Below are positions 1,085 through 33,954 of a DNA stretch of 64,000 nucleotides, in pieces. The notes below the pieces were generated by a model. The model saw only the letters and a list, made by a program, of their open reading frames with translations. It had not been told where the DNA came from and did not search any database. Made by a program: the position numbers and the translations under genes. Each line of letters starts with the position of its first letter. Position 1 is the stretch's first letter. This stretch comes from Sitta carolinensis (Eukaryota > Chordata > Aves > Passeriformes > Sittidae). The stretch lies in contig CM063290.1 in the NCBI GenBank assembly GCA_032173965.1, positions 620,001-684,000 on the forward strand, read 5' to 3'.

Positions 1085-1099
1085 GTCGCAGAGTGCTTG

Positions 1100-1280: not shown

Positions 1281-2224
1281 CTGCACATCACACTGAGCAC
1301 AGAGAGAGGCTTTCCTTTTCCAGGAGAGCTGCCTCCCAAAGGAGGGATGGAAATGAGGCCACTGGGAATTTGTTTTGGCTTCTCTTCTGCTTTATTGCAG
1401 AATGTACAAGGAATGAATACCCTCTCTCGCTGGACTCCCCCGGGTTTCCCTCTCCCCTCGTAGGACTGCTGTGCCCTTTAGCTGTACCACAGCCTGCCTT
1501 TGTAGAGGCCAGGTCTGCAGGTTCTTTTCACATTTACACGTGTGTTGTGAGTGGCCCTGTGGGACAGGGCACAGGCTGCTGCAGGAGTGCCAGCGCAGCA
1601 GCGGTGGTGTGGGGCTGTGGACCTGCTCCAGGGTTAGCTGCTCTGTGGACCTGGCCCCTCCTCTGCTCAAGTGCCATGCAGGTGAGCACCTCTGGTCCCC
1701 TCCAGCTGAGCTGCTCTGCGCCCACTCCGATCCTTCCCATCAAAGCACAGCCCTGCAGGGGCCCTGGGCTCAGCCATGGGGCTCGCAGGGGCCCAGGGCA
1801 GTGCCCCCCCTGTCTGGACAGCTGTTTGCAGACCGCCCGAGCACAGGGCTGTGCTGAGGTAGAAACCCGGCTGCAGGGCTTGGTGGCGATGGGTTATTGC
1901 TGCAGGAGGTACGAGCTACACCCCATTGGGATGAAGTACCTGTGTACCTCTGTGGCTGCACCGAGTGAGAACGCGAGCCTGTGGCGCTGCTGGGGTTAAA
2001 GCAGAGCGGTGCCTCCGGAGCGGTGAGATGGTTGTTCTGTTGCAGTTGCACCGGGAGACTGCCAGAGCAGCTGAGCCAGGAGCGGCGTCTCTCCGGCAGT
2101 CGGAGTTTGTGACTGACACCTCTGCGATGGATGATTGTCATCTGGTACAAATGCTGACTTGCGCTCAGTCCCCACATCAAACCACGCAACTCATATGAGA
2201 ATCACATGCCAGAGCACGTCACTG
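1281..2224. other. GC-rich DNA with long open frames but no recognised gene
   Basis: The plus strand is open from 1160 to 1999 (279 codons), the longest non-repetitive frame in the window. Its translation is rich in Cys, Ala, Gly and Pro, with no domain, signal peptide or repeat I recognise. The other plus frames are also open over long parts of the stretch (1143-1463, 1471-1857), which points to stop-codon depletion by composition. A good acceptor-like signal ends at 1400 and a donor-like CATGCAG|GTGAGC lies at 1681/1682, so a 281-base noncoding exon cannot be excluded. A second CpG-enriched patch spans about 1965-2105. Confidence 0.35.
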
Positions 2225-2370
2225 GTGCTCTGCGTGACCTTTCCCGGGCCCCCGAGCTCCTCCGCGGGGCCGCGGCTGCCCCGAGCCCGCTCTGCGCCGC
2301 GCTCCGAGGGTCCCAGCGGGAGCGCTGCCCGCAGCCTGCAGAGAGCATCCTCCGAACTCGGCCCGCCTGG
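2225..2370. promoter_or_regulatory. CpG-rich pocket
   Basis: Dense CpG sites in a GC-rich core (for example GGGGCCGCGGCTGCC) contrast with the AT-rich DNA that follows from 2500. No initiator, TATA box or YY1 motif was recognised, so only a compositional call is possible. Confidence 0.45.
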
Positions 2371-5300: not shown

Positions 5301-6965
5301 TAAATAGTTCACAATTATCCTACAAGATCTGCATGACATGTCATTAACTGAACCAAGGAGAAAGGTGGGAACTGGAGCTCCACTTCTGTTGTTTGAAAGG
5401 CTAAAACCAAGGAACACCAACAGTAATAGCAATTTTGGTTGAAGCACAGCTCCTTTTGCTTAAATACTTATTTCTATGATGCTTATTTTCTAAAAAACCT
5501 ACATCTTCACCAATATGATAAATATTTGTTGGGCACTGGGCAAGCTGGATCATTTCCCAGTGCATTTGGAAATAGTGAGAAGCACTTGAAACTTCCTGTG
5601 ATGATTTGAACATACTCTTGACACCTTATTCTTTCAAGCAGTTTTTTTTTGTCGTGTTACACTGCTGCTCAAACCCCAGAAGTTCACAAATAACATGGTC
5701 TGCCTGGAACTCTGCTGTTTTCCATGTGGAGAAAGCTGCTAATTAAGCTGATGGCTCTTGTCCCAGCCCTGAAGGCACACCGGCACAGAGACACTGGCAG
5801 TGGGCACTCATTGGGTGACTTCCAGAAATGCTTCCATGTCACTCCCCACCCTGGGAGGTGGCACCTGAAATGCTCTGGTGCCAGCTGCTCACAGAGATAG
5901 GAAGAATATGTACATTTCTCATTTTTCTTTCTTTTAATGTCAGTGTAGAAGCCCAGGTGAAATGTCTTTGCAATTCAATGCCATTTTCCTCTTTGTTCCA
6001 GTGTTGCAGGATTTGGTTTTTATTTTTGTCTGAAAGAGTTTAGGAAGCCAATGACTGCATGGTAATTAGAGACCCCATTTGGCTGCATTTAGACAGTTTG
6101 GAGGATGTAATTAGCTCTCGAGCCAGAATAAAGATGTACATCTCCAACTGTACTTCCCCAAAAACGTGACTTGGTCGCTATTCAGTTTTGGGGTTTAATC
6201 TGAGGTTGTCTGCATATTGCTATTTGAGTACCTGCAGGGGGTGTGTGTGCCATCCTGTCCTCCCACCCCCTTCCCTCAAACCTTTTTAAATCTCAGTCCT
6301 TCCTTTTGACAATCACACCACAAATATTCCCTGAGAACTGTGGGTTCTCAGATCAGCTTCCACATCCTGGGGACGTCCAGGTGTGGTGCTTTGACACTGG
6401 CTGTTGGGTTTCAAATTCTCCTTGACAAAGTCAGTGGGAGCAGAACTGGGGAAAGCTGAGTCCCTCAGAACATCCTATCTTTTATTTCCAGTCATGGTTA
6501 ACTGGGAATTTCATACATTAGAAAGCACTTGGAAACAGGACAGAAGAAAATATAAAAATCCAACAAACTTCTCTTATTAGTGATTCTTTCTGCAGCTTCT
6601 CTAACTCCAGGGCTCCTGGCTGGCTCAGCCCTTCACCAACGCTCTGCAGTTCGTGCCCAGCACCACTTTTCCACACCCCAGTGGGGATGTTTCCAGTGGA
6701 CTTCAGACACAAACAGGAAAACCTTCCTTCCGGCCACAGTAAATAACATTACCTCATCTCTGATACTATTCTTCTCCACGGTGCTTTATTGTAATGGGAT
6801 GTTGGACACAATGCCAAGAGGTTAAGGAGCTCGATCCAAGGTCTGTGAGCCCTGGAGAACAGGAGGAGTTTCCACCCCATCCCTTCTCTGAGTTAAGAAC
6901 CCGGCCAGGGAAGCTGAAGGCTGTAAGTGTTGGGCCTGGCAGAGGGGGTTCACCCTTTTTAAAGG
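2371..6965. other. single-copy noncoding DNA
   Basis: Predominantly AT-rich sequence with only short frames. Isolated donor-like sites (AAACAG|GTGAGT at 2678/2679 and TTTCAG|GTGAGC about 100 bases later) lack convincing partner acceptors. Apart from the T run at 2975-3002 I see no repeat, RNA gene or transposon terminus. Confidence 0.6.
2975..3002. repeat. poly-T run, 28 bases
   Basis: An uninterrupted T tract. It could be a simple mononucleotide expansion or the reverse complement of an old retroposed poly-A tail. I see no target-site duplication and no recognisable retroposed body beside it, so I favour a simple repeat. Confidence 0.9.
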
Positions 6966-6984
6966 AATGACAGCAGGGGCCCAA

Positions 6985-7135
6985 CGTTCTCCGTGCTGCC
7001 CAGCAAGGGTCCCTCCAGTGCCAGCGAGGCACCGGAGCGTGCTGCTGCGGATCGGCTGCCGGCAGCTCCTGTTACACCCTGAGGCGGCAGGGACGGCAGC
7101 AGGGATCAGCCAGCACCGCTGCCCGCGGGCGGGGG
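6985..7135. promoter_or_regulatory. CpG-rich pocket leading into a minisatellite
   Basis: CpG density rises abruptly here (GGCACCGGAGCGTG, GGATCGGCTGCCGG, CCCGCGGGCGGGG) and the pocket runs directly into the G-run minisatellite. The minisatellite has probably expanded from the edge of this GC-rich segment. Promoter function is unproven. Confidence 0.45.
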
Positions 7136-7635
7136 GCACCCAGCACAGGGGTACCCAGCACGGGGGGTGCCCATGCACGGGGGGTGCCCATGCTCAGGGG
7201 TGCCCATGCTCAGGGGTGCCCATGCTCAGGGGTGCACCATGCTCAGGGGGTGCCCATGCTCAGGGGGTACCCTTGCACAGGGGTGCCCATGCTCAGGGGT
7301 GCCCATGCTCAGGGGTGCACCATGCTCAGGGGTGCACCATGCTCAGGGGTGCCCATGCTCAGGGGTGCACCATGCTCAGGGGTGCACCATGCTCAGGGGT
7401 GCCCATGCTCAGGGGTGCACCATGCTCAGGGGTGCACCATGCTCAGGGGTGCACCATGCTCAGGGGTGCCCATGCTCAGGGGTGCACCATGCTCAGGGGT
7501 GCACCATCTCGGTGCACCAGCAGGGGTGCCCATGCTCAGGGGTGCACCATGCTCAGGGGGTACCCTTGCACAGGGGTGCCCATGCTCAGGGGTGCCCATG
7601 CACAGGGGGCACCCAGCACAGGGGTGCCCATGCAC
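7131..7635 (+). repeat. 16/17-bp G-run minisatellite, about 30 units
   Basis: Units alternate between a 16-mer, GGGGTGCCCATGCTCA, and a 17-mer, GGGGTGCACCATGCTCA. The extra A in the longer form shifts the phase by one base. Both ends carry the same variant units with CACCCAGCACAGGGGT (near 7136-7151 and 7610-7625), so the edges mirror each other. One internal unit is broken near 7505-7523. Every unit has a GGGG run on the plus strand. Because stop codons are absent, all three plus frames stay open and give spurious 180-220 residue frames rich in HAQGCPCSGV-like peptides. These are not genes. Confidence 0.95.
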
Positions 7636-7639
7636 TGAC

Positions 7640-9162
7640 CCCTGCTCGCAGCCACATCGTGTGGGGAGCACAGACCTCGGCAGCACCAGAGCTGAGTGCA
7701 GCAAGAAGGACTTCAGCCTAAGAAAGACGTGTTTAATTGTTTCTAAAATGTTTGAAAGACTATAAAAGTTTCTAGACAATACTGCTGTTTCAAAATGCAC
7801 TGTGAATGCCAAAAAAAAGCCCAGTGAGGCTGGTTTATTGTGCTCAAAGCTTTTCTGAAAAATCTTTCACTTTAAACATGATAAACCCCAAGTGCTTTTG
7901 AATAAAACATGGGTATATAGGGCAGAAGGATGTACAAGTCTGCTAATATTCATGCTTACTGTACAACAAAGTATATGCTCCTTTATGCAAATTCCTGCCT
8001 CAGCACAAGAGGGATCTGATGGAGAACAACATAAAAGAATAATACATGGACAGAGGGTTACTTTTATTAGAAATAACAGTTTAAGGAAATTAATATCCCT
8101 TTTATGAAATTAAAAATACTTGTAACACTTCTCAAATTAAAATGTATTCTTTGCCAAAGAGCATTTTAATAGAAATTTTGTCTGTTTGGAATTTTAAATT
8201 AAGCTGTAGTATTTGTAGTAGCCCATTTCCCACATTTGAAATCAAACATGCTTTTTTCATTAGAAAATTCATTGCTGGTGGTAAACAGCATTAAATTTAT
8301 CTAAAATACCTCACACTTCCCGTGAAACCTCAGAACTGTAGTCACACTTTGAAAATTCATGGGTTCTTAAAAACATTCCAAAAAAAGAAAGTCTCTGTTG
8401 CTGATTTTTATCAAGTTAAAATATCTATTCCTGTGACAAGAATTTCAAAGCATAACTAGTACAAAAGTGGGGTGATTTTTTTTTGGTACTATCATTTAAT
8501 TTAAATGTTGCTGACTTAAAATCCTGCTGAGAAAGATTCTGATTTATTCTGCTTCTTTAACTCTGTAACAGAAACAATCCTGGGATTGATGAGGATGAAG
8601 TGCATGTGAGGGAGGGAGTCACATACATTGTGGTTGTTTCTGGAGGGTTCATTCGTTTACATGTAAAGGAAAATTCTATCAGGTTTATTGTAAATACTGT
8701 TGTAAATAATTTTAATGTTATTGGAAATAATCCTTGCTGAACAGCAAGGTTTATGGTTGTGCTTTCTTCTTCAGACACAAAGGAAATTACTATGAACACA
8801 AAGTCTTAAATTTCTTTTATGAAGACAGGTGTTGTTGATTTATGTGTAATTCCCCATGAAATACTGTCTTGTGGTTCAAATTGAGTCTAACATTATTTAG
8901 GACTAAGAATAGTTTAGAAATTTCTTGAAACTGAAGAGCCTAATAGGCACAGACAAAGCAATATGCAAAGCAGGGAAAATGCATCGGGAAGCAATTGCAA
9001 GTCAAATTATTTTAAGAAAACAAACAAATGCTGCTGGGAACATTTTGTGTTGCCAGAGATGACAGGAGAATTGCACAGAGCTTTAAAATGGGCAACTTAA
9101 CAGGGATGTCCTGTGGCCCATAGGGATGTCAGGGCTGTCCTAAGGAAGCAGTGAAACAGTGG
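7640..9162. other. AT-rich single-copy noncoding DNA
   Basis: The only frames are short (under about 110 residues) and resemble no family I know. The AT-rich part from 8100 to 8900 has many TAAT- and TTAA-type words and could hold conserved noncoding sequence, but I cannot test that without an alignment. Confidence 0.55.
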
Positions 9163-9239
9163 ACAGAGAACAGACAGAGAACTGACAGAGAATTGACAGA
9201 GAACTGACAGAGAACTGACAGAGAACTGACAGAGAACTG
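9163..9239 (+). repeat. 11-bp tandem repeat, 7 units
   Basis: Seven consecutive copies of ACAGAGAACTG. The first unit reads ...AACAG and one internal unit has AATTG in place of AACTG. The array is purine-rich on this strand and has no open-frame or regulatory signature. Confidence 0.95.
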
Positions 9240-10075
9240 CAGTCACTGTTGGGCCTTGCAGGAACACCAGAAAAGCACCAGATACTGTTCACACCTAAGG
9301 CTATGGCAGAAAATAGAGGGCTTATTGGAAGAACAGGGGGTAGACTAAAATCGTGTGTAAGTCAAGACAGAATAAAGAAAGGGCTGTGGGTTGCACACAG
9401 GGTTATCAGGTGTTGTACTGAACTCGGACAAACAGTCAAGCTACTCTAAACATCCCCAAATGGACTGAAGATAACATTAGGACAGGGGCAGAGTATTCAG
9501 AAGGATAAATATATTTAAAATAAAGGACAAATTTCCTAACAATGATGTCAGTGTATACAATCCTACTCCAGACAGATTCATTCTCCTACAAGTGCTCGGC
9601 GGCAGTCCCAGACTCGAGCTGTGCACATCCTGCACCTGCACGTTTACCCTCCCACGAACCCTCATGCAGCGATTGTTCCCAGTGCACCGTGTGCCCAGCG
9701 CCGCGGGCTGCGCGTGGGGCATGGCTGGGTGCTCACGGCTGTGTCACTGTGGGCGAGGGACAAACGACACGGACCTCCTTTGTGAAAACTTCATCTGACT
9801 TTAATCTTTATTCAAAACTTGACTCTTTTTATATATCTTCTAGAATAAGTCATCTCATTGGTCAGAAGAGTGCCAGAACTCTTCATCCCATCGGTTTAAA
9901 CTGAAAGACGGAGAGAAGTCTATCCCACAGACAGGAATTCAAAATATCACTCTTGTTACAATAACACTTATAATGTTTATGTTAAGCCTGTGAGAACCAG
10001 GTCTTCCTGGAGCAAAACATCGTGAAGAAACTGAGTGTAGAAACTCAGAACCTTCAGGCCCGGGATGCCCAGACT
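9240..10075. other. single-copy noncoding DNA
   Basis: No gene recognised. Short frames on both strands lie in moderately GC-rich sequence between 9590 and 9730. No RNA gene or mobile element was seen. Confidence 0.55.
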
Positions 10076-10084
10076 GCAGGGGTG

Positions 10085-10235
10085 GGATGGTGCCCTGGGC
10101 GGCCGAGCAGGGCAGCGGCGGTGCCGCCCGGCACGGGGCAGGGGCCGGCAGCCCCGAGGGCACCGAGTGCCTCGGCGGGAGCTGCTGCCCCTGCCACACG
10201 CACTGAACGCGTTACTCTGGCTGGCAGCAACGACT
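10085..10235. promoter_or_regulatory. CpG-rich pocket
   Basis: CpG sites cluster in this block (GGGCGGCCGAG, GCAGCGGCGGTGCCGCCCGG), flanked by AT-rich DNA on both sides. Several short overlapping frames on both strands reflect GC content. A promoter role is possible, but no core promoter motif or donor is evident. Confidence 0.45.
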
Positions 10236-10390
10236 CCGCGGTGCAGACCCAAACACTGCACCCCCCTCTCCTCATCTGCTTCCCATCCCGCATGAAACGT
10301 GAATGCCTCGAGATGGGAATGCGCTGCACTCCCACCTGAGCCGGACTCCCACGCCTTTCGGTGTGAGCCTATTCACAGCAGCAACCACAC

Positions 10391-10462
10391 GAAACATCCT
10401 TGGAAAATCTGACTCTGAATAGACCTGAAACATCCTTGGAAAATCTGACTCTGAATAGACCT
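10391..10462 (+). repeat. perfect 36-bp tandem duplication
   Basis: Two head-to-tail copies of a 36-base segment (10391-10426 and 10427-10462), each starting GAAACATCCTTGG and ending TGAATAGACCT, with no mismatch between them. Perfect identity in otherwise single-copy AT-rich DNA implies a recent event, or a collapsed or expanded polymorphic site. Confidence 0.97.
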
Positions 10463-13080
10463 GTTCTTATGTGAACAGTTTGAGGAACCAAAAATTTGGG
10501 TTAAGTTGAATTAACAAAAGAGTTTGGCTGAGAAGTATTTCTAAGGACTTATATTTAATTTCAATGGTTTTCAATTTTACATGTTGATTCTTCTGTTCAG
10601 AGAATGAACTGGAATTAACAAAAGAGATTAAAACAGTAACATACTTGAGAGAAAAAGGAAATTTTTCTTCTGTTTTCTAGATAAAACTAAGAGGGTTTAT
10701 TGTGGAGCTTTTGCTGCCCCTGGATATTTCCCTCTCACACCTGAGCTGGAACATTGCTATGATGGATGGCTTCATCCTGCCTAGGAGCAGCCACACTGGC
10801 TAAGGCCAGGGATTCCAGAGTGTGGATCCATGGATGTGCTGCTCAATCTCCTTTTTTCACTTTTTTTTTTATTTTGCAGTACTTTGCGAGACAGGAAATA
10901 GAAGGTAAGGCCTAACCAGCTAACAGAATCTTGCTGGTTCTTTGAAGGAAGTTGGGAAGCCGCAACAGAGAAGGCAAAAAACCAAAATAATTTTACAGCT
11001 GCATCTGGGTGCTCTAAAAGAGGAGAGATGGTATGGCCAAGTTCCCATCGGAAGGGAGGTGCAGGGAATGAGCCACAAAATGAACACAGCGCACATCATT
11101 TTGGCAACGAAGTCTAGGAAGAAAAATTTTTGAGAGATGATGTTAAAGAGTAAGGGTGGGGATTAACTAATGTCTGGTGGTAAAAAGGAGGTGGAGAAAG
11201 CAGAGTCATGGCTGACTGAGAGGTTAGACACTCAGGTCAGGAAAAGGACAGCGGGTGTGAGCCAGGAGCAGGACGAAGCAGGGGACTGAGGGGCTGTGGG
11301 AGAAGCAGTGGGACTTGGGGGCCCAGCTGAATGGAGAACAAGTCATCCAGCAAAGGAAGTAGAAAAGACAATTTAGATATAAATCAGGATCCTTTGGGGG
11401 CTGAGCGAGAAGTAAAACAAAGAGAAGTCAATTCAAGGAAGTAAAGAAATGTGGGAGGCACAGAACAGAGTGGGGCAGCCTGAAACTGCTCCACAACAGA
11501 GCATGCCACAGAAGCCTCACAGAAACACATCCCAAAATAGATTTCATTAATTTTACTTCGTATTAAGCTGAGAAAAGACTATCAATATTTCTCAGTTTCA
11601 TTTTACAATTATTTTCCCCCCGAATATCCTAAAAGCACAGGGAACAGGACCTGAAGAGCTTTCACTTTGTCAAGGTACCTGCTAAAGGCTGTGCTGAATG
11701 AGAGCAGGTGCAGGAAGGTGCATTGCTCAGGATGGCTCTGCAGAGTTCTCCTGCTCTCCACCCCTGCACGAGTCTGTGTTAGCATGTGAAATATTCAGAT
11801 CCCTGGCAGGAATGTCACTGGTTATGGAAAGGGCAGAGAACGATCTTTCCAGAACTCAGCTGTAAGCAGAGGTGGGACATGGAACTTTGCCTCAAGTTCC
11901 TGAGGCAGGTAGGAAAAAAAGGTACCAAACAATTAAATATTGTACTGAGTACTTTTCATCAGTTTTAAGTCAAGTAATAGATTAAAATGAAAGCACAAAC
12001 ACAATCATTATATTTAATATTTAATGCATCATACACTTGCCATAGGCATTGAAAAGTATGAAATGCTTTCCTTTTTGGAACGCCCATTGTGGTGTCCCAG
12101 CATAGGCACTGTAGAAAGCAAATTCTGGAATTCGGTTGTGGCAAGGAGGTTAAGGAAACAGACTGGAGGGAGTGTGAGGGTCCCTCATACTCAAAATGTT
12201 TGTTTTAGCCCAACTGAGACAAGCTCGCAGCAATAAAATCAATGATCCCGTGGTGAACTAATGAGGAAAAGTGTGAGAAGATCTGACTAATAAAAAACGG
12301 AAATTGCATGTTGTGTGAATAGCAGTTATCACTTCCAGATTGTGCAGGCTCTATTTTTCTATTTAACAGTAGAATATATTAGCATACCACCACTACAAAA
12401 TGCAGCAGTTTATTCCTCTGTAACCTTCCTCTGCCTGAAAGGAAGGTTGAATTTCAGCCTAGGCCTGAGTCCACCCGTGTTTTCCACCCATCCACAGTGC
12501 TACAGGCAAGGTGATTTACAAGCAGATTCCCACAGAGGAAACAGAAGAAATGGCTGTGAAAATCTGCCTTCCCCCTGTAATAAATGTATCAAATTCGTGC
12601 TCCTGTGTTACCTATAACACCCCTCAGTTAACCCAGACCTGTCTGTGCCTCTCTCGCAGGTGCCTGCGCTCAGGGGCAGGTATTGCTCTGTAATTAATGT
12701 GAGTTATTTAACAGTAAAAGTTTATCAGAGTAAACAAGTGCAAACAATACCATCTCTTTTGTCATTTACCAGTCATTTCCTCAAGGAGGAAATATTAATA
12801 ATCACAGATAAACGCACACAGATTTTTAGCTGACAGTGTACGTAAATGCAATGATCTTTGTGATTTTTACATTACAGTCTGTAGACAACACTGGGAACCT
12901 GAGGCACCTTAATGACCATGATTCAGATGGGTGCTGGTGACACTGCTGTCAGCGCCTGTGGGGCACTGGCTGGGACCACACAGCTCAGGCACGTGTGAAC
13001 AGTGGATCAGCCCTTAGCAAGACTCGCTGCCCTCTGGGGACATTTTCACTGGGCAGCCCACAGCTCCAGCCCTCGCTCTG
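10463..13080. other. single-copy noncoding DNA, purine-rich in part
   Basis: From about 10900 to 11500 the plus strand is strongly purine-rich with few stops. The remainder is AT-rich. No coding gene was recognised. It contains the 25-base exon-like segment listed separately. Confidence 0.55.
10880..10904 (+). other. candidate 25-nt microexon
   Basis: A long T-rich tract ending ATTTTGCAG lies directly before this segment, which is followed by a donor AGAAG|GTAAGG. One frame reads YFARQEIE and one other frame is also open. The flanking splice signals are strong, but 25 bases is not a multiple of three and the upstream poly-T may be a simple repeat. Chance occurrence is quite possible. Confidence 0.15.
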
Positions 13081-13088
13081 GAGCCCAT

Positions 13089-13223
13089 TGCGCCGGGCCC
13101 TCAGCGCGCCGGGCCCTCAGCGCGCCGGGCCCTCAGCGCGCCGGGCCCTCAGCGCGCCGGGCCCTCAGCGCGCCGGGCCCTCAGCGCGCCGGGCCCTCAG
13201 CGCGCCGGGCCCTCAGCGCGCCG
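13089..13223 (+). repeat. 16-bp GC-rich tandem array, 8 units
   Basis: Eight consecutive units of CGCGCCGGGCCCTCAG (13089-13216; the first unit begins with T) plus a partial ninth. All other units are identical, so the array expanded or was homogenised recently. Each unit contains GGGCCC and CGCGCC, giving four CpGs per unit counting the junction. Frames running through it are open but show only repeated SAPGPQRAGPSARRAL-type peptides, an artefact of the unit. Confidence 0.97.
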
Positions 13224-13242
13224 CCTTGAGTACTGCATTCCC

Positions 13243-13513
13243 ATTGGCCGGGAGTTCCCAGCGCAGGCGCGATGGTCCGACGTTCCCGCGCAGAGACGAT
13301 GATTGGTCCGAATTCCGGCAGAGCGGCGATTGGTCCAATGTTCGCGCGCCGCGCGGCGATTGGTCCGACGTTCCCGCGCAAAGCGATGATTGGTCCGAAG
13401 TTCCCGCGCAGAGCGGCGATTGGTCCAATGTTCGCGCGCCGCGCGGCGATTGGTCCGACGTTCCCGTGCAGAGCGGCGATTGGTCCAGCGTTCGCGCGCT
13501 GCGCGGTGATTGG
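13243..13513 (+). promoter_or_regulatory. 30-bp phased array of inverted CCAAT boxes (NF-Y type)
   Basis: ATTGG, the reverse of CCAAT, begins at 13243, 13302, 13329, 13359, 13389, 13419, 13449, 13479 and 13509. A decayed copy (GATGGTCC) begins at 13272. Spacing is 29, 30 and 27 bp for the first three steps and exactly 30 bp for the last six. From 13302 to 13487 the core is GATTGGTCC. The segment after each core is usually E2F-like, either TTCCCGCG or TTCGCGCG. Two units read ATTGGTCCAAT, so they carry CCAAT on both strands. Units follow an A-A'-B order suggesting a 90-bp higher-order unit. NF-Y is known to favour CCAAT boxes spaced about three helical turns apart. Binding here is inferred. 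Confidence 0.85.
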
Positions 13514-13559
13514 TGCTCTCCGCCGCCTCGGGGGAGGGTCAGCGAGGAGCGGCAGCGGG

Positions 13560-13841
13560 CCTCTGAGGGGAGCGAAGATGGCGGCGGCTCCGTGAGGGGG
13601 CTGTGTCCGACACGGGAGGGAGCCACAAGCGTGCGCTCCCCCTGAGCTCCCATGGGCTTGAGCTGCTCCCACAGCCCAGTGCAGTTTGCCCTGCATTAGT
13701 ATGGCTGCCCGTCCTGCTCTCTGCAAGCACCTACGTTTTCAGCCTGTGTCCTGCGTCAGAGCAAGGCTCTCGTGCCAGCTCCCACAGCCACCGAACTATC
13801 CCAAGAAGTGAACGAGCTCTGAGGGTGATACTCCCCTTCAG
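13560..13841 (+). other. candidate first exon of a rightward transcript
   Basis: The YY1-type motif AAGATGGCGGC lies at 13575-13585. In many vertebrate promoters it sits just downstream of the start site and fixes direction, here rightward. The start is therefore placed loosely near 13520-13570. A good donor, CTTCAG|GTACGT, follows at 13841/13842. The ATG in the YY1 motif opens only MAAAP before a stop, which would act as a tiny upstream frame. A longer frame through the exon has no ATG start. The product is best read as a noncoding first exon or 5' UTR. Confidence 0.4.
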
Positions 13842-14163
13842 GTACGTTCTATGTGTCCCTTCAGTTTGATACACCAAAGAGCAACAGGGTTGTAATAACA
13901 CAAGATACCTTGAGTACTTAAAAGCTGACTAACTAAAATTACCTTAGCAGTCATACTGTATTTCCAATATTATACAGCATGTTTACTGCTTATACTTCAG
14001 AGTGCAATACTTGATAAATTTTTAAAACGCATTTAAACATAAGTATGGACACTGAAAATTTACGTATTCTGCACTTCTGATGAGCTCCTCAGCTAACTGC
14101 ACTCTCAACCCACCACAATTTCTATGTCCCTTTCTCTAGCCTGAATTACTGAGTAAAAGATTT

Positions 14164-14183
14164 AAAAAAAAAAAAAAAAAAAA
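14164..14183. repeat. poly-A run, 20 bases
   Basis: An uninterrupted A tract in AT-rich DNA. No retroposed body or target-site duplication was recognised next to it. Confidence 0.9.
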
Positions 14184-15191
14184 GTCAGTTTAAGAAGTAT
14201 ATATATAAAAAAGTAAAATCCATATAGGGTAAATTGAGTAGTGGAGGCATGAACTTGCCCATAAAAGCGTAACTTTCTTAGTGCTAGGCACTGAAAAGAG
14301 GAGCAACAACCGAGACGTGTAGTTGAAGAAGGGAGAGAAATTTCTCTTCTGATGAGTCTTTTATTTTCTCTTTATTCTTTTTTTTGTAAGTTGTCCCACT
14401 CTAGCACAGTGTTGTAGTGTTTGTGCTGTAAATGCTCCAGAAAACTATCCAAATTTAGAGGAAAAACTACTTAGTGATTGCTTGGAAACACAAAACCCTA
14501 CAGCAATACAAACCATCCTATGAGTGTAACACCTGTGCCTCTGTCAGCCATCTCCAGTGCTTCATTTTACATGTTTGCTGTAGATCTTGCACAGCAAAAT
14601 GTAAAAGCTGTGCTGGGTTATGAGCTGTTGGATTTATAACATTATTTAGTACCATTTAGTTACTACAATAAAATTATCCCCCTCTCAAAACTTCATTTGT
14701 TAGAAAGGAATACAATTACTGAATGTTTATGCAGGGGTTCTAAAGTACATGACAAAGAGTTGATCCCTTAAGTATGAATGCCTACATGCAATCTGAATGT
14801 GTTTCTGGGAACATTTTAATTGCACACTGATAACAGGGTGTCTTTGTGGCCACACTCGTCCATTGGAACACGATCAAAAGCAGAGGAATTGAGTTATGTT
14901 TAGACCAACTTCCTCCTTGCTGTATTCCCTCTGCTGCTTTCAGGGCAATTATGATGCGTTTCTGTGTTCCAGAATTTAGGGGGAAGAAGATGGGGGAGAG
15001 AAACAAAATCCTTTGATAGTTTTGACTCATAAGAAATGAGTTTTCATTCACAGAGAGGTCTGGCTCCATTACTATTCATAAACCAAACAATAGCCAGCTC
15101 AGCAGCTGGAATGAACTGGGGGTACTGGATCTGTGCAGAGGGATGTGGGGTCGTGTGTGTCTGAACTGGCCATGCTGATTATTGTTTTCAG

Positions 15192-15235
15192 CTTTGTGAT
15201 TGTGGTTCAGTAGCAAAACACTTGCTGAAGTCAAG
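15192..15235 (+). other. candidate second exon of the 13.5-kb transcript
   Basis: A strong acceptor (TGATTATTGTTTTCAG) precedes this 44-base segment, and the donor-like TCAAG|GTGCGT follows. Only one frame is open (LCDCGSVAKHLLKS). It does not join in frame with the longest frame of the candidate first exon, so if the two are spliced the product is noncoding or 5' UTR. The intron would be 1350 bases. Confidence 0.2.
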
Positions 15236-18200
15236 GTGCGTGGCTACCCGAAGGCTTGCAAACCCCACTGCACCTACAGAGCATTGGTGAATCTGAGTGA
15301 CTTAAATTTTGTCTTCTTTTTGAGGTTTCTGAACTGTGGGAGATAAGCTGATCTGTTATTTCAGAATGATGGTGAGATACTAAAAAAGCCTTTGTTTAGG
15401 CTGACAGCTTTATACATGGCTGTGGGAATTGTTAGCCTCATTCTCCTGCCTGTGCTGGTGGAAACTGGTACTGGTACTGGATGCTACTGGATGTCTTGTG
15501 GCCCTGGGAATGCAATTGTGGACAGTTTTTGATCTATAAATTTACCATGTTCTTAGAGATAAAGTTTTTTCTGAGTTCATTCCATTCTTAAGCCTGCTTT
15601 ACCCATCTGATCTATTGTTACCCAGGTTCAGAATTTGTTTTAAGCAGTATTCCGTACCAAGCATGAGACAGAAGGAGTGGGCAGGGGACCCTTTCCTTAC
15701 AGCTGGGGATCCCTGCAGCAGGCACCAGCCCTGGTCAATGAGGAGTCAGATCTTTGGCTCATTTGTAGCGGAGCCCCCAGGCTGTCAGACACTGAGCACC
15801 CTTTCATCCTTGTGACTTCAAAGTGCTGCTCAGAGCTGGGCAGAAAGAGCTTTGAGTTAGGTCTGTAATTGAAGCAGATCTATTAGGCTGCCCTGCCTCC
15901 TCTTTTCAAAGCATGTTGTTTGAAACTTTGCAGCAAATGGACGTGTTCAGGTAGAGCAGGGCTCATGGAATTATTGCAGCTCTTTTTAGCTATCTATAAA
16001 TGCACCTTCCTGGAATGTCATTTGAGTGGTAAATCAAACACTGCCTCATCTCCTGTTACACAGAGTTCAAAAATATTTAAGGTTCTCAAAGCATTGGAAG
16101 GGAATTGTGTTATTACGAAGTTGGCCTTAGCATTTTTGACAGGCCTGCAGGTTTCATCCTCTTTATCCAGAGGAGCTGAGAAAATTGTGATCACAAAGCC
16201 AAACCTGGAGTTGTGTTCTGGCGGTGCAGGTGCCTCGCTGCCGAAGGACTGTCAGAGATACAAGCGTGGTGTCCCTTGGTGGGAGTTAAATGTGCTGTTG
16301 GTAGAAATGCTGCTGTGGTAGAAGTATCAGAGGCTTTGGCCACGGAGACCCAGCCCAGCGTGGGGAGCTGGGGCTGAACCCGTGTCCCCCACCATGGACC
16401 CTCACCCCTGTGGCAGGCAAGGCACACGAGGACTCATGCTCAAATCATGAGCACTGGCCAGCTCTGAGTGTTCCAGGCTGGAATATTCTGGTGGAAATAG
16501 ACACAGTAAATAGAAACAGGGTTTCTATTGAAGTTGGTAAAAATGTAAGGCAGCCTTGTTGTCTGAGGTGGAAGTGAGGTGTGTGAAGGTCTGGGTCCTG
16601 TCTCCCTGGGAGCAGCCCCTTTTGTGTTTCATCTATGAGATACCTGGATAATATGTAACAGAGGAAAATTGCAGTTAAAAATAATCAGGGTTGATCTTGA
16701 AGGTGTCAGGAAAGGAAGTGCCTTACAATGCCACAGGACTTGGGTTCTTTAAAAACCCTATAAAATAACATTTTTGGAATTTCAGGTGCCTGATAGAGAT
16801 ACTGGTTAACCCCAGCCACACACTGGCTGGAGTCAGTGGCTATGGAATAGCAACCATCAGCTGCAGGCAGGCTTGAGGTCTAGCTAAGTGTTCAAGAATT
16901 CCTGAAGGTCATAGTGAAGAAGGAAAATGGAGAAAAGAGAACCTGGGATTTCTTACATATAGGAAATTGGGAAAAGCATACATCTCACTGAGAAGCCAGG
17001 AAGCATGCATGCACATGTCTGTTCTTGCTGCTGAATATTCCTAGTGTTCCCAATTCAAGGGAAGTTCTAAAAAACATTCTAAAATCCATTTGACTCCAGT
17101 TCAGATTCAGTTTCCTTCAAGCAAAAATTGCTGCTTTTCTGCCAGTTGTGTGGCCAGAGTCACACCAGGAGCTAGGACAGGGAAGATCCTGCTGGTGATG
17201 TTTGCTCAGTGTTGCCATCACAGTCCTGGCTTAGTCTAAAGCCATGTCAGGCAGGAGCCACTGGCAGCACCGTGTCCTGGGCAGAAGGTTTTGCTCTGCA
17301 AGGGAATGTTTGCACCTTTGCACTGAACCACTTCCTTCTCAAAACCTCAGTCTGTGTCTTTTAAGAATTACAAGGTTCCATGTAGCAAATCATAAAGCTT
17401 TTCTTGTTTTTACCAGAGGTGTTGTTTTTCCTTTGGAAGCTTTGCAGATCTCCGTGAGACTCCAAGCTCCCTCTGAAAGCTGGAGCTGTTTCACAGGGGT
17501 TGCTAAGGTGATTTGGTGGGAAGGAAATGCACTGGTAATTTGCTGTTAAGTTGTTTACAGGAGAATATGAATAAAATTTTACCGCCTGAGCAAGGCAAGT
17601 GTCTGCGTGTGAGAGTATTCCAGAAAGACCTCACTGGAGAAGAACGGTACAAATGCCCAATTTGTCACCCCCAAGGATGATAAAATGTGATGTCTGCAGG
17701 GTAGAGGCAGAAACAACTCGTGTCACCTTTTCATCATTTCAAACAGAAAGTGGAACATTTTCATTTTGCTCCCTTTTCTTTGATTTTTAAATGTATTTCT
17801 ATATGTGAATGGTTTGTCAAGTTCTTACTGGGGAATATTTAGTGTTCCAAAGTAGATATTACACTGAGTCATCACAAATAGCTTTAAAGCTATGAACAAA
17901 CCCTGCTGCCCCCATGCAGCTCTCCTCCCAGGAAACAAGAAAGCACGACAAGTCTTTGGTGAGGGATAAAATCCTTCTTGATTCCAAATATCAGGGCTGC
18001 CTTATTCCTAGGATACGGCAATTCCATGTGGGGTACCAGCATGTGCTCAGTATCCTGCCTTTTCCAGTGTTCAGTCTGCCAGGTTTTAGAAGGAAACAAA
18101 GTTATGGCTCATGGGGGGAAGGTTTGAACAAATAGTCTCAAAGCATAGGGCCAATGCAAGGAGGTCTCAGGTGTGTAAATTCTAGAGGGGAGCTGTGGCA

Positions 18201-18347
18201 GGCAGAGGCTCTTTGCCACTGTGCCATCTGGATTTTCCCTGGATTCTCCATTTCCTTCTGTAGAACTTCTGGGATACTGACAGCAGATGATTAGGTGTGG
18301 TTCTTTAGCTGGGCTTTCTGACCTGGCAGAAGATACAGGTGATTTAC

Positions 18348-18368
18348 CTGCTTAGGTCTCGACTTAAC
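18348..18368 (-). other. candidate 21-nt microexon
   Basis: On the minus strand, CAGCCTCTTTGCAG precedes a 21-base segment translating to VKSRPKQ, and AAGCAG|GTAAATC follows. The length is a multiple of three, the frame is open, and the frame continues open into both flanks. Short in-frame exons of this size are a known class in neuronal transcripts of vertebrates. I cannot place it in any gene, and a chance match is possible. Confidence 0.2.
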
Positions 18369-20794
18369 CTGCAAAGAGGCTGCTGGAGAGTTGTGGATGA
18401 CTTGTTCCCCATATTTCGGGACAAGCTGGCGAGGTGCTGGAGCTGTGGGGTTTGCAGCCCGCGCGTTAGAGCCAGCGGGCCTGGCCACTGAATGCACTCA
18501 GTCTGGGCTCTCCTCAAGGTGTGTGAACCCAGGGCGTGGGTTGGTAACACACTGATGGCTTTTACTAACCCACAACACCCGACTCCGAGTAAAAACACTC
18601 CAAATAAACACCATGAAATATTTACTGCCTTCTGCATAGCGAGTCTGAGCCGTCTGAAAACCTGTCAGAATTGAGACATTGCTGACTGTCCCAAGTCTGC
18701 CCTGCATTTACCTTATCTGCAGTCTCTGCAATTAAAATACATTTCCAAATCTTATGATTTCCTCTATCCCGTTTCCTTTCATATTCTCTTAGCTTGTCTT
18801 GCTCTATTACTCTTACTTTTAATACGACTTGGAAAGACAAAAACTTTCCCATGTTTAAGCCTTGACTTTCCAGACATCAGATTGATTTACCTCAATGTTC
18901 TGGGCACGGTGGTGATATTTAGAACTTTAATAAAGAGGTGAAGAAAGGGAAAAATAACTCAGTACTTTCCTGATAAGGAATGCATATGCTGTGACTTTGC
19001 AGGTGAGATATTAATAAACCCTTTACTGAAGCAAAAATATTTCCATTTGTATGTTTTTGTGCAAATTCTTACCAAGGAGAGGTGCAAACAGGGCGAGGGA
19101 GAATTTTACAGCTTCTTCAGTTTCTTTATGATTACTAAGATTTCCTTTTTGTTCTTCCAAGAAGAAGAAGAAGAGTTGTTTATTTTTTTCTTTTTCCAAT
19201 GTAAATATAAAAAGCTTCACATTCTTGCATTCTGTGAGTTTCTGTAGCTGTTGTAGGAGCATGCCTGGTGAAAGGAAAGCTGCCTTAGACAACTGCTGTG
19301 GCAGTCGGACTCTAGAGCTGAGAGGGATGGCTTTGGAAAATGAATGGCATTTATGTAAATAGCAAAACTCTAATTTCTCCACTGAACAAAAGTCCTCCCG
19401 AGAAAAGCTTCTTCCAAATTTTAGGCATTTGAATGAAATACAACCTAAAAATTCAAATGCTTCTTGGCAAGTTCCATTTATATTCTGCAGAGAGCTCATG
19501 CTAGCTCTCTGCATACATGCAGGTCTTATTCTGAAGGTAATTTAGCTTTTTTCTCACATAGTAACTAAAAAAGCAGCAATTAACTCCATCTGTTTTCACC
19601 AGAAAAGGCAACATAAATGAGATTTCAAAGGTGCCAAATTGAGATTGAGAGGAGCTTTCCATTGGTTTTACCTGGTTCCAGGACACTGCTGCTCCAGTCT
19701 TGCCTAAGATATAACTGGAAAGGTTTTATTGATAAAAATGGTCCCGTCTTGCGTGTGCTGCTCCAAGGACATGCCTGCCGTTTTCTGGCACCGCTCTGAA
19801 TTTGAATTATAAAGAGCAGCACAAAGACAAAGCTGATGGGAAACAAGTCCCTTTAAGAACAATTCCTTATCCACCGCCCATTGCTTTTGGAGGTGGCTTT
19901 TTTGTTTGCTTGTTGGCTTTAAACATGAATTAATCTGCTTTCTTGTTTCGAATGAAGAGACTTCCTGTGGTGAAGCGAGCAGCCGAGGCAGAGTGTGGTG
20001 TGGGCAGGGTGGGAGCTGCTGCCCGACACCGGCCGGGCTCGGCGACAGAAGGCAGCACAGAAACCCTTCCCTTTCCTCCTTCCACAGTTACTGAAGGCTG
20101 GGCTGACATTGCAATGGAGCCGCACTGTTCTGTTCCAATGAAACACCCCGGTCCTGGTCACTGAGGAATTCAAACATCATCATTTTCACAGGCTAGTCTT
20201 TCAGATATTGGTTTTCATTCTGATTTTTGTGTGATGATATGCTATTGAAAGAAATCTTAAGAAATCTATGCAAATAATCTAAGAATAACAAGGTAAGTTA
20301 GCAGGACACTTTGACTTACCATAGAGAAATCTAAAATGTCAATGTAATTTTCTTTTTCAGGTCCACATATTAAAACCTTTCTTTTAAGACACCTTTGATT
20401 AAATCAGATTAGGAAGGTTATTAAAACTGTCAAATTTCTTGAGAAGATGCTTACACCATATTGTTGCTAAGAATTTTTAAATATGCTATTGATATCATAA
20501 AATAATTTTCACCCTTTTTTATATCATCGGAAGTTAATGTATCATTCAGACATTAGTAAATGGTGCTCAACAATGCATTCAGACTGTTCAGAATCCTGCA
20601 GGGCTCATCCTCCTTGTGCAGGACAGCAAACACTGTTGTCAAAGTTCAGAGAAGTGCAGATGTTCCAGCTGCATGCTGGAGGAATCTGGGTTAAAGAGTA
20701 GATGTGGGGGAGCTCTGCTGTCTCCTTGTCACCTGGGGAGCGGAAGTAGAAGCGGATGGATGGAGCCGACACTCCAGGGCGCTCAGTTCTGCTC

Positions 20795-21122
20795 GTGTGC
20801 CAGTGAATGTAAAGCCGTGTGTCAGTGAATGTAAAGCCGTGTGTCAGTGAATGTAAAGCTGTGTGTCAGTGAATGTAAAGCTGTGTGTTAGTGAATGTAA
20901 AGCTGTGTGTTAGTGAATGTAAAGCTGTGTCAGTGAATGTAAGCGTGTGTCAGTGAATGTAAAGCTGTGTGTCAGTGAATGTAAAGCTGTGTGTTAGTGA
21001 ATGTAAAGCTGTGTCAGTGAATGTAAAGCCGTGTGTCAGTGAATGTAAAGCTGTGTGTCAGTGAATGTAAAGCTGTGTGTTAGTGAATGTAAAGCTGTGT
21101 CAGTGAATGTAAAGCCGTGTGT
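20795..21122 (+). repeat. 22-bp minisatellite, 15 units
   Basis: Fifteen units built on GTCAGTGAATGTAAAGCTGT with a variable GTGT extension. Full units are 22 bp and shorter ones lack GT repeats. Variants alternate C/T at two places (GTCAG or GTTAG; AAGCC or AAGCT). The array is AT-richer than the other minisatellites and is not next to a CpG island. Minus-strand frames read repeated SLTHSFTFTDTAL-like peptides and are artefacts. Confidence 0.95.
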
Positions 21123-24100
21123 AGATGCACGCTGGAATTTCTGAAGGATGGGGGTTACCATGGATACACTGAAGCGACCAGATTGGCGTGAATGCAGAGC
21201 TCTCACTTCTCTCTGGTTGCAGGAGGATTTGTTCTGATAGGAAACTTGTGCTGCCTCTGTTTCTCCTCCTCCTCCCACTTGCTACTGGAGCAGTACAACT
21301 CTTGGATGCTGTGTGTGATTCTAAGGGACAATTCTGATCATGGTGCTCTGTATCTGCTGCCCATGTCTGGGATTCTAACACACCAGGGACACTTCACCTA
21401 AATTTAGTTTCAAATGAATGATAGAACTAAATAATTTTGGGTGCTTCGAATTCCTAATGTGAGAACCGCCTCTGTTTTCAGACTGTGAGTGTACATGAAT
21501 GTGCCTGTCCTTCCACTGCGGGGGGAGAGGTGTTTGTGGTGGAAAAAAATCGCTGTAGACTAGATAACAGGGCAGAAATAAGATAGAGGGGAAAATACCA
21601 GAAAGCTTGTTGAGTTCATGGCTGGTGTGTTTTTCTTGAGAGTGGGAGTGCCAAAGGGGCTTGAGAGGAGGAAATATTTCTTTGGAGTGTGCAGAGAATT
21701 GGTATTGGGAGCAAAAGGGCTTCTGAAGTTGTGTGGGAAGAGGATTTGGTCTCTGAACTCCTGCTGTAGTTCTGAAAATTTGTCCTGTCCTCTCTGCTTG
21801 CCTTGCTCTTATGTAAGCTGCAGTGCCGAGGAAGGGTGAGAAGGGTTCTCCTCTCTTCCTGTCCTTCTGTTCTCTGTTCCACTGCTGAATTCCTTGAGGG
21901 CAGAATCTCCAGCCAGTGCCGAGGCTGGAACAAACGGAAGGTGTGCGGGGAAGCCGCGGCTGGCAGCTCCCAGCACGGACGGGGCCGGCCCGGGCTGATT
22001 TTTGCTGTGGCTGTGACCCAGCAGTCCCGCATGCCCAGATCCTGTGATGCCCTGACGGCCCCTGGAACACGGAGTGTCTGTTCCTCTGACAGGTGGAGGG
22101 GTTTGCATTTCATAGGGCAACGAGCTCTTCGTTTAAATGCTGTTTCAGTGATAGAAGTACTGATGTCTGAATTGAATAATTGACCCCAATCTGTAGCACA
22201 TGAAAGAGAGTCACTAAAGAACACTGGCTGATGTTGATAGTGTTGCTACTTCCAGAAGTATTTCTTCTTGACACAGCGAAATGTTGCTGAAGTCACACTG
22301 TTCCTCACTGTCTTGTGGATTTCTCTCAGTTCAATTGATACTAACTTGGGTGCTGTACACTAAATAGCCACATCCTTATGCTTTACATCCCTGCTGTTGG
22401 CCTGTGAGTCTGTACTCATTAAAATATAAATAACATTACAGAGGTAGTTTGACTGGTGGAAGACCTATGTGCTAGCCCTCATGGGGAGACTGGGGGAACA
22501 CAGGAAAAACCCTGTGTCTACTTGTATCCCTGCCAAGGAGATGGTATTAACATTATTTCAAATGTAACACAGCCAGAGCTGGAATGTTTCCCCTGGTAAA
22601 TGCCTTTGGGAGGATGCTGCTATGAAATAAATTCTTGAGCAGTGGATTGGTTATTATGAAAAATACTTTTCCATAAGGACCCATAATTTTAGAAAGCACT
22701 ATCCCCGAGAATAATAATGTGCTGTGGTTGGTAAATGATTTCCTTTTAACTCTCAGTATTCAGATTTTATTTTGTGAAATTACAAAAACTTTCCAGTTAA
22801 TTTTTCCCTTTCAGGCCCCAACTAGATCCTAGCAAAAGCTCGATTAACGTGCTGATAAGAGCATTAGCGTGCTCTTAGGATCAATGCTTCTTTGTAAGCT
22901 GAGAGTGAAAGTAGATGAGCGTTGCTGTTTTCTGCTTTTACTAATGAGCTGTTTATCTCGGTCTCCAAGCTGCAGGACTCAGGTGGAGCTGTCATTTCTT
23001 TCTGCTCATCAGAACTGCTGGATACAATGGGAATGTGTGATTAAGGACAGGCTAAATACCTGAGTAGGAGCAATGTGACTGTACCTATCCTGGCTTGGGG
23101 CAGTCTGTGTTTGTAAGGCTGCTGTCAAGATTTACAGGTTTTATGGAGTTGGATATTTGGCTCCCTAGAATCCAAGTATATGCCATAAATGAGCATGAGT
23201 GTTTCTTCTGAAAAATCACTGAAAATAGCTGAATGTTCCAGATGAAATTGTAATAACGCCTGGAGCATCAGTTTATAGAGTCAGCTGCCTATGGAGATGC
23301 TTCTGACAGACTTCCAGTCATGAGTGGTGTGCTAAAGCTCTAAACCCCAAAGATTTTATCCATTTTGTAATGTTTTGGATTGTCTCACTCCCACAAAATT
23401 TTCTTTTTGGAATTCCAGTGAGTGCGTAAACTCAATAGTAATTAACGGCAACTTATTCCTCGTGTAGTTCTTGAACTTCTTCAAAGTATTTTCTACTACT
23501 AGTTTCCCTCAAAAAGCTGCAAATTTTTTTATGTTCTTCTGGAATGTGCAATCTGCATTTGTCACATTTTTTCTAGTTTTTAAAAAAAATGTGTTTGAGT
23601 GGGACCAAGGACAAGATTTTATATGACTTTAAATTGATTGCAAAATGATAAATTCGTGAGCACAAAGAAAAGTGAATCAGTCTTTCAGTTCTCTCCTTAA
23701 GTGGTGTATAGTTTCTAGATTAAGCTTTTTAAGAAAAACATAAAAATTATACATGTTTAAGACCAGCTTCATACTGAATCCCTAATAAGAACGGATACTA
23801 TTTGCTCTTTGCATAGATCCTACTGCCTGGGTAGATCAGCACACAAGTATTTTGCAGTGGAGAAGCTCAGCTGGGAGCACATAAACTGTGAATGGACAAG
23901 CAGATGAGATGTGTGGGTACATCCAGCTGCTGCTGACAGCCTGGCAGTGGCATGTGCTTGAAAGATCTCGGCTTAAAACATCAGATGGTGTATAGTTTTT
24001 GCCGTGTTTTCACAGGATAGTTGTGTCTATTTACCAAGATAGATACTGAGAATCAGAACCTTTCCATTCCAAGGACCAGTGGCCAAAGCAGCCCAGAGGT

Positions 24101-26295: not shown

Positions 26296-26349
26296 CCTCA
26301 CCTGCCGCTCAGAAGACCCGCTGTATCGAGTTCTCCTTTGGGTTTGGAG
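26296..26349 (+). other. candidate 54-nt exon
   Basis: The acceptor-like CACTGTGTTTTGCAG precedes and GGAG|GTAAGG follows, with a second donor GTG|GTAAGT at 26420/26421. All three frames are open across the 54 bases, one reading TRCIEFSFGFG with symmetrical phase 1-1. No family was recognised. Confidence 0.17.
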
Positions 26350-33934: not shown

Positions 33935-33954
33935 GTGAGTGATGCGGCTCTGCA

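What the first reader, a model, noticed from the sequence alone, without database searches (positions are those of the whole stretch)
13243..13513. Ten-site inverted CCAAT array locked to a 30-bp step
Nine perfect ATTGG boxes and one decayed copy sit in one register, and the last six intervals are exactly 30 bp. Most units also carry an E2F-like TTCCCGCG or TTCGCGCG at a fixed offset. A tandem repeat has thus built a composite NF-Y/E2F promoter with sites on one helix face. Two or three phased CCAAT boxes are well known in cell-cycle promoters; a ten-unit minisatellite of them is unusual. Copy number may tune promoter strength between individuals or species.
Basis: partly seen in the sequence, partly recalled or inferred. 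Interest (0 to 1): 0.78.

Follow-up and report, generated by a model that had tools for sequence, protein, structure and literature searches.

The report
NF-Y-site minisatellite at a bird promoter
A run of ten near-identical 30-base units, nine with an intact docking site for the common gene-activating protein NF-Y, sits just before a probable gene start in what looks like a bird genome, and other loci of that genome carry similar arrays with nearly the same unit length, close to the spacing NF-Y prefers in human promoters.

Summary
In detail: nine ATTGG boxes plus one copy with a 1-bp deletion, steps 29, 30, 27, then six of 30; TTSSCGC follows in 6 of 10 units. The array lies in a CpG island just upstream of a YY1 motif and a splice donor, in the RAP2B-ARHGEF26 interval of a 1.03-Gb genome, probably a bird, and was found once there. 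Pfam scans of most of the window gave no exon. Best reading: a GC-rich promoter minisatellite grown from a CCAAT unit, serving as a redundant NF-Y platform for an unannotated transcript. Two claims fail: at 10.5 bp/turn the sites are not on one helix face, and cell-cycle marks are missing (no CHR, no strict E2F site). The kind recurs: RAP2B, 27 kb away, has four CCAAT/GC-box units at 30, 31, 31 bp, and other loci carry up to 28 boxes, mostly at 29-31 bp. CpG-rich ATTGG pairs rise from 0 loci at step 21 to 16 at step 30 (filter chosen afterwards). Constraint on the boxes is weakly supported. Occupancy, transcription and polymorphism are untested.

The parts
13090..13223 (.). upstream minisatellite, 16-bp unit GCGCCGGGCCCTCAGC, 8.4 copies, 100% matches, no CCAAT
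13243..13513 (+). NF-Y-site array: 9 ATTGG plus one 1-bp-deleted copy (box at 13272); steps 29,30,27,30x6
13243..13247 (-). outermost CCAAT (on - strand), diverged flanks
13261..13270 (+). NRF1-like GCGCAGGCGC (consensus recalled)
13272..13275 (-). decayed CCAAT (ATGG, one T lost), unit type A
13302..13306 (-). CCAAT, unit type B, three bases shorter than the others (27-bp step)
13329..13333 (-). CCAAT, unit type C; TTCGCGC at 13341
13359..13363 (-). CCAAT, unit type A; TTCCCGC at 13371
13389..13393 (-). CCAAT, unit type B; TTCCCGC at 13401
13419..13423 (-). CCAAT, unit type C, identical to the unit at 13329; TTCGCGC at 13431
13449..13453 (-). CCAAT, unit type A; E2F-like core lost (TTCCCGTGC)
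13479..13483 (-). CCAAT, unit type C variant; TTCGCGC at 13491
13509..13513 (-). CCAAT nearest the presumed start; probable founding site (inference)
   Evidence: fails RRCCAATSR at one base
13575..13585 (+). YY1-type motif AAGATGGCGGC; marks the start region and rightward transcription (inference)
   Evidence: PMC11269187, passages
13550..13841 (+). inferred first exon (5' end approximate), ending CAG|GTACGT
   Evidence: sequence; weak exon candidate ending at 13841; no transcript data

Best explanation
The array is a promoter-embedded minisatellite. A CCAAT-bearing ~30-bp unit just upstream of a TATA-less CpG-island start site was duplicated, first in 30-bp steps and then in 90-bp (A-B-C) steps, until ten NF-Y sites lay side by side. 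NF-Y occupies several of them, keeps a ~300-bp stretch free of nucleosomes, and the site nearest the start (13509) sets initiation at about 13,550-13,590, with YY1 just downstream; NF-Y bound further down the array blocks starts inside it. The other sites give redundancy and strength. A 30-bp step is close to the 31-bp spacing that NF-Y pairs prefer and leaves about 5 bp of free DNA between two bound trimers, where the E2F-like core begins; that core overlaps the next footprint by about 2 bp, so E2F and full NF-Y loading would compete. The transcript runs to the right and is probably a lncRNA or a distal alternative 5' exon of ARHGEF26. Shown: sequence, anatomy, single copy, gene neighbourhood, recurrence of the kind. 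Inferred: NF-Y binding, start site, order of events, role of the extra boxes and of the E2F-like core.
For: Sites and steps; RRCCAATSR in 8 of 9 intact sites and a YY1 motif 62 bp right of the last box; CpG o/e 1.71 at 13301-13500 against 0.20-0.38 in 6 of the 10 windows measured; 30- and 90-bp periods. Recurrence: RAP2B promoter 30/31/31; runs of four or more boxes, mostly at 29-32 bp, at 8 of 13 fetched loci; the window linker is unlike the linkers of 5 other families (160 to 467 of 500 shuffles at least as good). CpG-rich ATTGG pairs followed by C/T: 0, 1, 2, 6, 10, 16 loci at steps 21, 24, 26, 28, 29, 30 (lists; filter). Human NF-Y pairs: minimum 24, promoter peak 31 (PMC4982600, passages); the most 3' site dominates start choice and NF-Y downstream of a start represses it (PMC11269187, passages).
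Against: No ChIP, ATAC, CAGE or RNA evidence. No Pfam exon in the scanned parts of the window, so the product is unknown. Constraint on the boxes is weak: GATTGGTCC 0 of 9 variable columns against 10 of 21 outside gives P 0.012 but the block was chosen after looking; ATTGG alone P 0.11; with the T deletion counted, 0.065 and 0.38; units are also related by descent. One site is dead and one step is 27. 12 of 16 CpG islands in the 264-kb region carry or adjoin tandem arrays, 10 of those 12 without a CCAAT-bearing array, so arrays arise at such places without NF-Y.
Confidence: 0.55

Rival explanations
1. A neutral minisatellite that happened to start from a unit with a CCAAT. Only the last box, at the normal promoter distance, works; the rest are passengers and the 30-bp step is accidental.
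For: Tandem duplication gives the register for free; box constraint is not significant for ATTGG alone (P 0.11); the neighbouring 16-bp array has no CCAAT; 12 of 16 local CpG islands carry or adjoin arrays, 10 of them without CCAAT-bearing arrays; birds lack PRDM9, recombine at promoters and CpG islands, and upstream regions are rich in tandem repeats (PMC10781513, passages).
Against: CCAAT arrays at nearly the same period elsewhere, and pair counts rising toward 30 bp, are not expected if period is irrelevant; but these loci were found through searches at steps of 30 or less and a filter set afterwards.
Confidence: 0.32
2. A cell-cycle promoter of the NF-Y/E2F (CDE/CHR, DREAM) type.
For: TTSSCGC in 6 of 10 units at one place in the unit; a shuffled unit has one in 1.7% of 20,000 trials; [quoted passage not shown]
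Against: 0 strict TTTSSCGC and no TTYGAA CHR in 13051-13900; the core overlaps the next NF-Y footprint (my arithmetic); the same paper cites a lack of distance bias between CCAAT and E2F sites; no known cell-cycle gene among the flanking genes identified.
Confidence: 0.07
3. An ER-stress (ERSE/ERSE-II) array for NF-Y with ATF6/XBP1.
For: ATTGGTCC(G)ACG resembles ATTGGNCCACG (consensus recalled); the box at 13479 is one mismatch from CCAAT-N9-CCACG.
Against: 0 of 10 units match either consensus: at least 2 mismatches to ERSE-II, at least 1 to ERSE.
Confidence: 0.02
4. A piece of a retroviral LTR with tandem NF-Y enhancer units, like human LTR12/ERV9.
For: LTR12 U3 has 5-17 repeats of about 41 bp with CCAAT (PMC11853044, passages).
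Against: One match of the 271-bp array in 1.03 Gb (that tool skips simple repeats and very common words); beyond six array units only two 2-mismatch sites, as many as the reversed-pattern control.
Confidence: 0.01

Closest known systems
ABO blood-group CBF/NF-Y minisatellite enhancer (Kominato 1997, cited in PMC2988417; passages)
   Same: host minisatellite whose unit carries an NF-Y site; four repeats give higher luciferase reporter transcription
   Different: there 1 or 4 units about 4 kb upstream (43-bp unit recalled); here ten 30-bp units directly at the presumed start
ERV9/LTR12 U3 tandem NF-Y enhancer (PMC11853044, PMC3185768; passages)
   Same: 5-17 tandem CCAAT units bound by NF-Y
   Different: about 41-bp unit, GATA/MZF1 motifs, retroviral and dispersed; this array was found once in the genome and has a GC-rich linker
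31-bp CCAAT direct-repeat promoters (PMC4982600; passages)
   Same: direct CCAAT repeats at almost the same step in promoters
   Different: there pairs in human; here ten units made by tandem duplication
RAP2B promoter array of the same genome
   Same: 4 CCAAT at 30, 31, 31 bp upstream of the start codon in a CpG island
   Different: CCAAT forward relative to its gene (here inverted relative to the presumed transcript), GC boxes in the unit, linker unlike ours
MAOA uVNTR (recalled; only a search listing seen)
   Same: 30-bp promoter repeat
   Different: not an NF-Y array (recalled)

Membership tests
NF-Y target promoter | CCAAT with RRCCAATSR-type flanks (consensus recalled) | tested here: met
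   8 of 9 intact sites; the site at 13509 fails at one base
NF-Y target promoter | NF-Y occupancy in cells | not testable with these tools
   no ChIP data held
NF-Y-bearing minisatellite (ABO type) | tandem units each carrying a CCAAT | tested here: met
   9 of 10 units intact
NF-Y-bearing minisatellite (ABO type) | copy number varies and changes expression | not testable with these tools
   one genome, no relatives held
NF-Y-bearing minisatellite under selection | boxes more constant than the rest of the unit | tested here: inconclusive
   P 0.012 for a block chosen afterwards, 0.11 for ATTGG, 0.065 and 0.38 with the deletion counted
stereospecific NF-Y pair (about 31 bp) | step of at least 24 and near 31 bp | tested here: met
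   steps 27-30; PMC4982600
stereospecific NF-Y pair (about 31 bp) | all sites on one helix face | tested here: not met
   51 degrees per step at 10.5 bp/turn, 21 at 10.2
CDE/CHR cell-cycle promoter | CHR TTYGAA near the start | tested here: not met
   none in 13051-13900
CDE/CHR cell-cycle promoter | E2F consensus TTTSSCGC | tested here: not met
   0 strict, 6 relaxed TTSSCGC
ERSE/ERSE-II | CCAAT-N9-CCACG or ATTGG-N-CCACG | tested here: not met
   0 of 10 units
LTR12-type LTR | dispersed repeat | tested here: not met
   one match in the genome

The most novel reading that the evidence does not exclude
In this (probably bird) genome, promoter minisatellites with CCAAT boxes have arisen repeatedly from unrelated sequences and are kept or amplified mainly when the unit is 29-31 bp, because that length lets neighbouring NF-Y trimers load side by side: selection on transcription-factor geometry sets the unit length of a minisatellite.
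Probability: 0.33. Interest if true: 0.72.

Novelty: new variant of a known kind. Interest (0 to 1): 0.48.

Why it matters
Minisatellite unit length is usually treated as an accident of slippage or recombination. If NF-Y geometry decides which promoter repeats survive, unit length becomes a readable trace of protein spacing, and such arrays, sitting at promoters where recombination is concentrated in animals without PRDM9, would be a natural source of copy-number variation in promoter strength. One genome-wide count can test the claim.

Tried and rejected
Gene identification. Frames with stops read as X were scanned against Pfam. + strand: 13501-32499, 36101-55999, 56001-58552 and 60060-64000. 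- strand: 1-3302, 3501-13499, 13501-23499, 24801-34799, 36101-55999. Not scanned: + 1-13500, 32500-36100, 58553-60059; - 3303-3500, 23500-24800, 34800-36100, 56000-64000. Exons without a Pfam domain, and short ones, would be missed. Two sub-threshold hits (DotU 13.7 bits, cut-off 27; GSAP-16 14.5 bits, cut-off 27) are taken as noise. One PDB search of one + frame, 13501-28500, gave nothing. A codon-usage exon scan of the window gave weak candidates that I could not confirm. Rfam at gathering scores and a tRNA scan with the bacterial code were empty.

A protein search with the array's open frame, in the hope of spurious ORFs annotated in other species, gave 7 candidates, none at E 0.01. A viral-contig scan for the unit gave nothing. 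Recalled CR1, MIR and Alu pieces gave no hit in the window, so the bird call rests on genome size, gene order and low repeat content, not on repeats.

Constraint test. The first hand alignment had one row a column too long, which inflated the variable columns to 14 and gave P 0.0008. One search replaces it (10 of 21 outside variable; MAFFT placement of that unit gives 12 of 21, P 0.0034). The first notebook entry still carries the wrong figure. I lowered the best explanation from 0.60 to 0.55, raised the neutral rival from 0.27 to 0.32 and the novel case from 0.35 to 0.33 downward because of it.

Common origin of this array and the 30-bp array at the ARHGEF26 promoter: they share GCAGAGCGGC; shuffles at least as good were 14, 21 and 2 of 2000 for three units tried, which does not establish it. 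Independence of the families is not complete either: linkers of C196 and C2 look alike (4 of 500 shuffles), C196 and C4 less so (22), RAP2B and C206 (47).

Uncentred counts of ATTGG pairs at steps 30 and 29 (3553 and 3194; reversed control 2443 and 1864) were set aside because dispersed and simple repeats are plain in the listed part. The CpG-centred lists replaced them. There the totals do not exceed the reversed control at any step (60/78, 43/45, 18/40, 43/44, 34/33, 49/60 at 21, 24, 26, 28, 29, 30, except by one at 29); only the GC/CpG-rich, C/T-flanked subset shows the rise, and that filter (linker GC at least 0.65, at least 2 CpG, C or T after the first ATTGG) was chosen after seeing hits and is easier to pass for longer linkers. 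Steps above 30 could not be searched; step 27 did not complete. Rows typed into the filter: step 30 all 49, step 29 all 34, step 26 17 of 18, step 28 21 of 43 (left out: further copies of the C7 and C10 arrays, and one row each from C16, C25 and C30), step 24 9 of 43 first and then all 8 with C/T, step 21 3 of the 8 rows with C/T out of 60 (the other 5 are copies of the C31 array). One unit family (C206, C222, C237, C251, C34, C16) supplies 7 of the 16 step-30 loci; without it the series is 0, 1, 1, 6, 9, 9 (my subtraction). The chi-square ignores family and linker length, so I do not lean on it.

Full report
The array. Nine ATTGG boxes and one copy with a deleted T occupy 13243-13513, with steps of 29, 30, 27 and six times 30. 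TRF sees a 30-bp unit and a 90-bp higher-order unit. Set out box by box, the units read A B C A B C A C', by eye, so 30-bp copies probably came first and a 90-bp block was duplicated later (inference). A relaxed E2F core TTSSCGC follows in 6 of 10 units, the strict one in none.

Constraint. Among eight units the block GATTGGTCC has no substituted column (0 of 9) against 10 of 21 outside (P 0.012, block chosen after looking); ATTGG alone gives P 0.11; counting the deletion at 13272 gives 0.065 and 0.38 (which corrects an alignment slip). The units are related by descent as well. So selection on the boxes is hinted at, not shown.

The promoter. The array and a second, perfect 16-bp minisatellite (13090-13223) form one CpG island (C15:632980-633680), with 37 CpG and o/e 1.71 at 13301-13500. 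No TATA match was found in 13051-13900. AAGATGGCGGC lies at 13575 and a CAG|GTACGT donor follows 13841. YY1 sites prefer positions downstream of starts in human cells (PMC11269187, passages), so transcription probably runs right from about 13,550-13,590, with the last CCAAT some 40-80 bp upstream.

Place in the genome. The window is G000:C15:620001-684000 of a 1.03-Gb genome with no relatives held. Flanking exons found by codon usage match a muscleblind-like protein at 534.5 kb (best PDB match MBNL1), P2Y purinoceptor 1 at 571.9 kb, a Ras-family gene with its ATG at 606.8 kb (Pfam Ras 189 bits; the name RAP2B is recalled), a RhoGEF at 716.9 kb (33.2 bits, cut-off 27.6) with a PH-like exon at 729.0 kb below cut-off (the name ARHGEF26 is recalled) and DHX36 at 742.4 kb. 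This order is recalled as conserved in amniotes; genome size and low repeat content suggest a bird. The window itself gave no Pfam exon on the stretches scanned (listed under Tried and rejected), so the product is unknown: a lncRNA, or a far 5' exon of ARHGEF26, which has its own CpG island at 707.6-708.9 kb.

Copies. The 271-bp array has one match in the genome (that search skips simple repeats and very common words). The unit pattern with 2 mismatches finds six array units and two other places, as many as the reversed-pattern control (1 + 1).

Geometry. Human NF-Y pairs have a minimum of 24 and a promoter peak at 31 bp, with contacts from -7 to +17 of CCAAT (PMC4982600, passages). A 30-bp step fits. 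From those contacts (my arithmetic), each trimer covers p-13 to p+11 on the + strand, p being the A of ATTGG; the E2F-like core is p+12 to p+18 and the next trimer begins at p+17. So the core begins in the free gap but overlaps its neighbour by two bases.

Recurrence. In the same 264 kb, TRF also shows a 31-bp CCAAT array at the RAP2B promoter: CCAAT at 606359, 606389, 606420, 606451 (30, 31, 31), each followed by GC-box-like sequence, with the ATG at 606783. Its linker is unlike ours (467 of 500 shuffles as good). Genome-wide, pairs of ATTGG with a central CpG were listed for six steps. Loci with a GC- and CpG-rich linker and C or T after ATTGG number 0 (step 21), 1 (24), 2 (26), 6 (28), 10 (29) and 16 (30) (on the lists). 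Against this: total hits do not exceed the reversed-pattern control (49 against 60 at step 30, for instance), the filter was set afterwards, longer linkers pass it more easily, and one unit family gives 7 of the 16.

Of 13 places fetched around such hits, 8 show runs of four or more boxes, mostly at 29-32 bp: C206 (28 ATTGG in about 1 kb), C4:152.98 Mb (27, mostly 31), C237 (9), C34 (5), C222:31.5k (5), C16 (a run of 4), C196 (4 at 29) and C2 (4 at 32, 30, 30). Of the other five, C251 has five in two short runs, C20 has 28 at irregular steps, and C222:44.4k, C39 and C25 have two or three per strand. The set is biased, since it was found through steps of at most 30. C206, C222, C237, C251, C34 and C16 share one unit by eye, so they are one family, yet TRF gives them about 3 to 34 copies, which points to copy-number change among related arrays. 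Some other families may also be distantly related (C196 and C2: 4 of 500 shuffles).

Origin. Birds lack PRDM9, recombination concentrates at starts and CpG islands, and upstream regions are rich in tandem repeats (PMC10781513, passages). 12 of 16 CpG islands in the 264-kb stretch carry or adjoin arrays, 10 of these 12 without a CCAAT-bearing one. So promoters here are a place where minisatellites are born, with or without CCAAT; the open question is which survive.

Precedents. NF-Y minisatellites are known: the ABO enhancer (PMC2988417, passages) and LTR12 (PMC11853044, passages). The ten paper searches (several listings capped) showed me no description of host promoter CCAAT minisatellites with a 29-31 bp preference in birds. 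A study of sequence motifs in chicken promoters has 0 mentions of CCAAT or NF-Y in its main text (PMC4203960); passages of a chicken repeat survey (PMC4992247) and a house-finch promoter paper (PMC3605853) gave nothing on this. The library lacks most subscription papers, so this is weak evidence of absence.

Verdict.

Noticed in passing
L013:6347-6472 (C15:606347-606472): RAP2B promoter has its own CCAAT/GC-box minisatellite, 4 boxes at 30, 31, 31 bp.
   Followed up: yes
L033 (C206:20201-22800), 764-1803: 28 ATTGG in a ~31-bp array of about 34 units; a like unit at C34, C16, C222, C237 and C251 with about 3-9 boxes.
   Followed up: partly
L036 (C4:152982001-152983700), 323-1238: 30 copies of a 31-bp unit with ATTGG; CpG o/e of the fetched stretch 1.28 though its GC is 0.46.
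   Followed up: no
L029 (C18, around 3934652), 1500-2160: CpG-rich stretch followed by irregular units with CCAAT and TGAGGTCAC/TGACGTCA (CRE-like).
   Followed up: no
window 13090-13223: 16-bp minisatellite, 8.4 copies, 100% matches, beside the array; perfection suggests it is young or an assembly effect.
   Followed up: no
C15:706759-707663 (L004): 30-bp array, 31 copies, at the ARHGEF26 CpG island, without CCAAT, sharing GCAGAGCGGC with the window unit.
   Followed up: partly
window 58587-60044 and 34841-36025: Large minisatellites (19 bp x 77; 10/20 bp x 118/60); the first lies in long open frames in all three - frames (246 to 631 codons), taken as non-coding.
   Followed up: no
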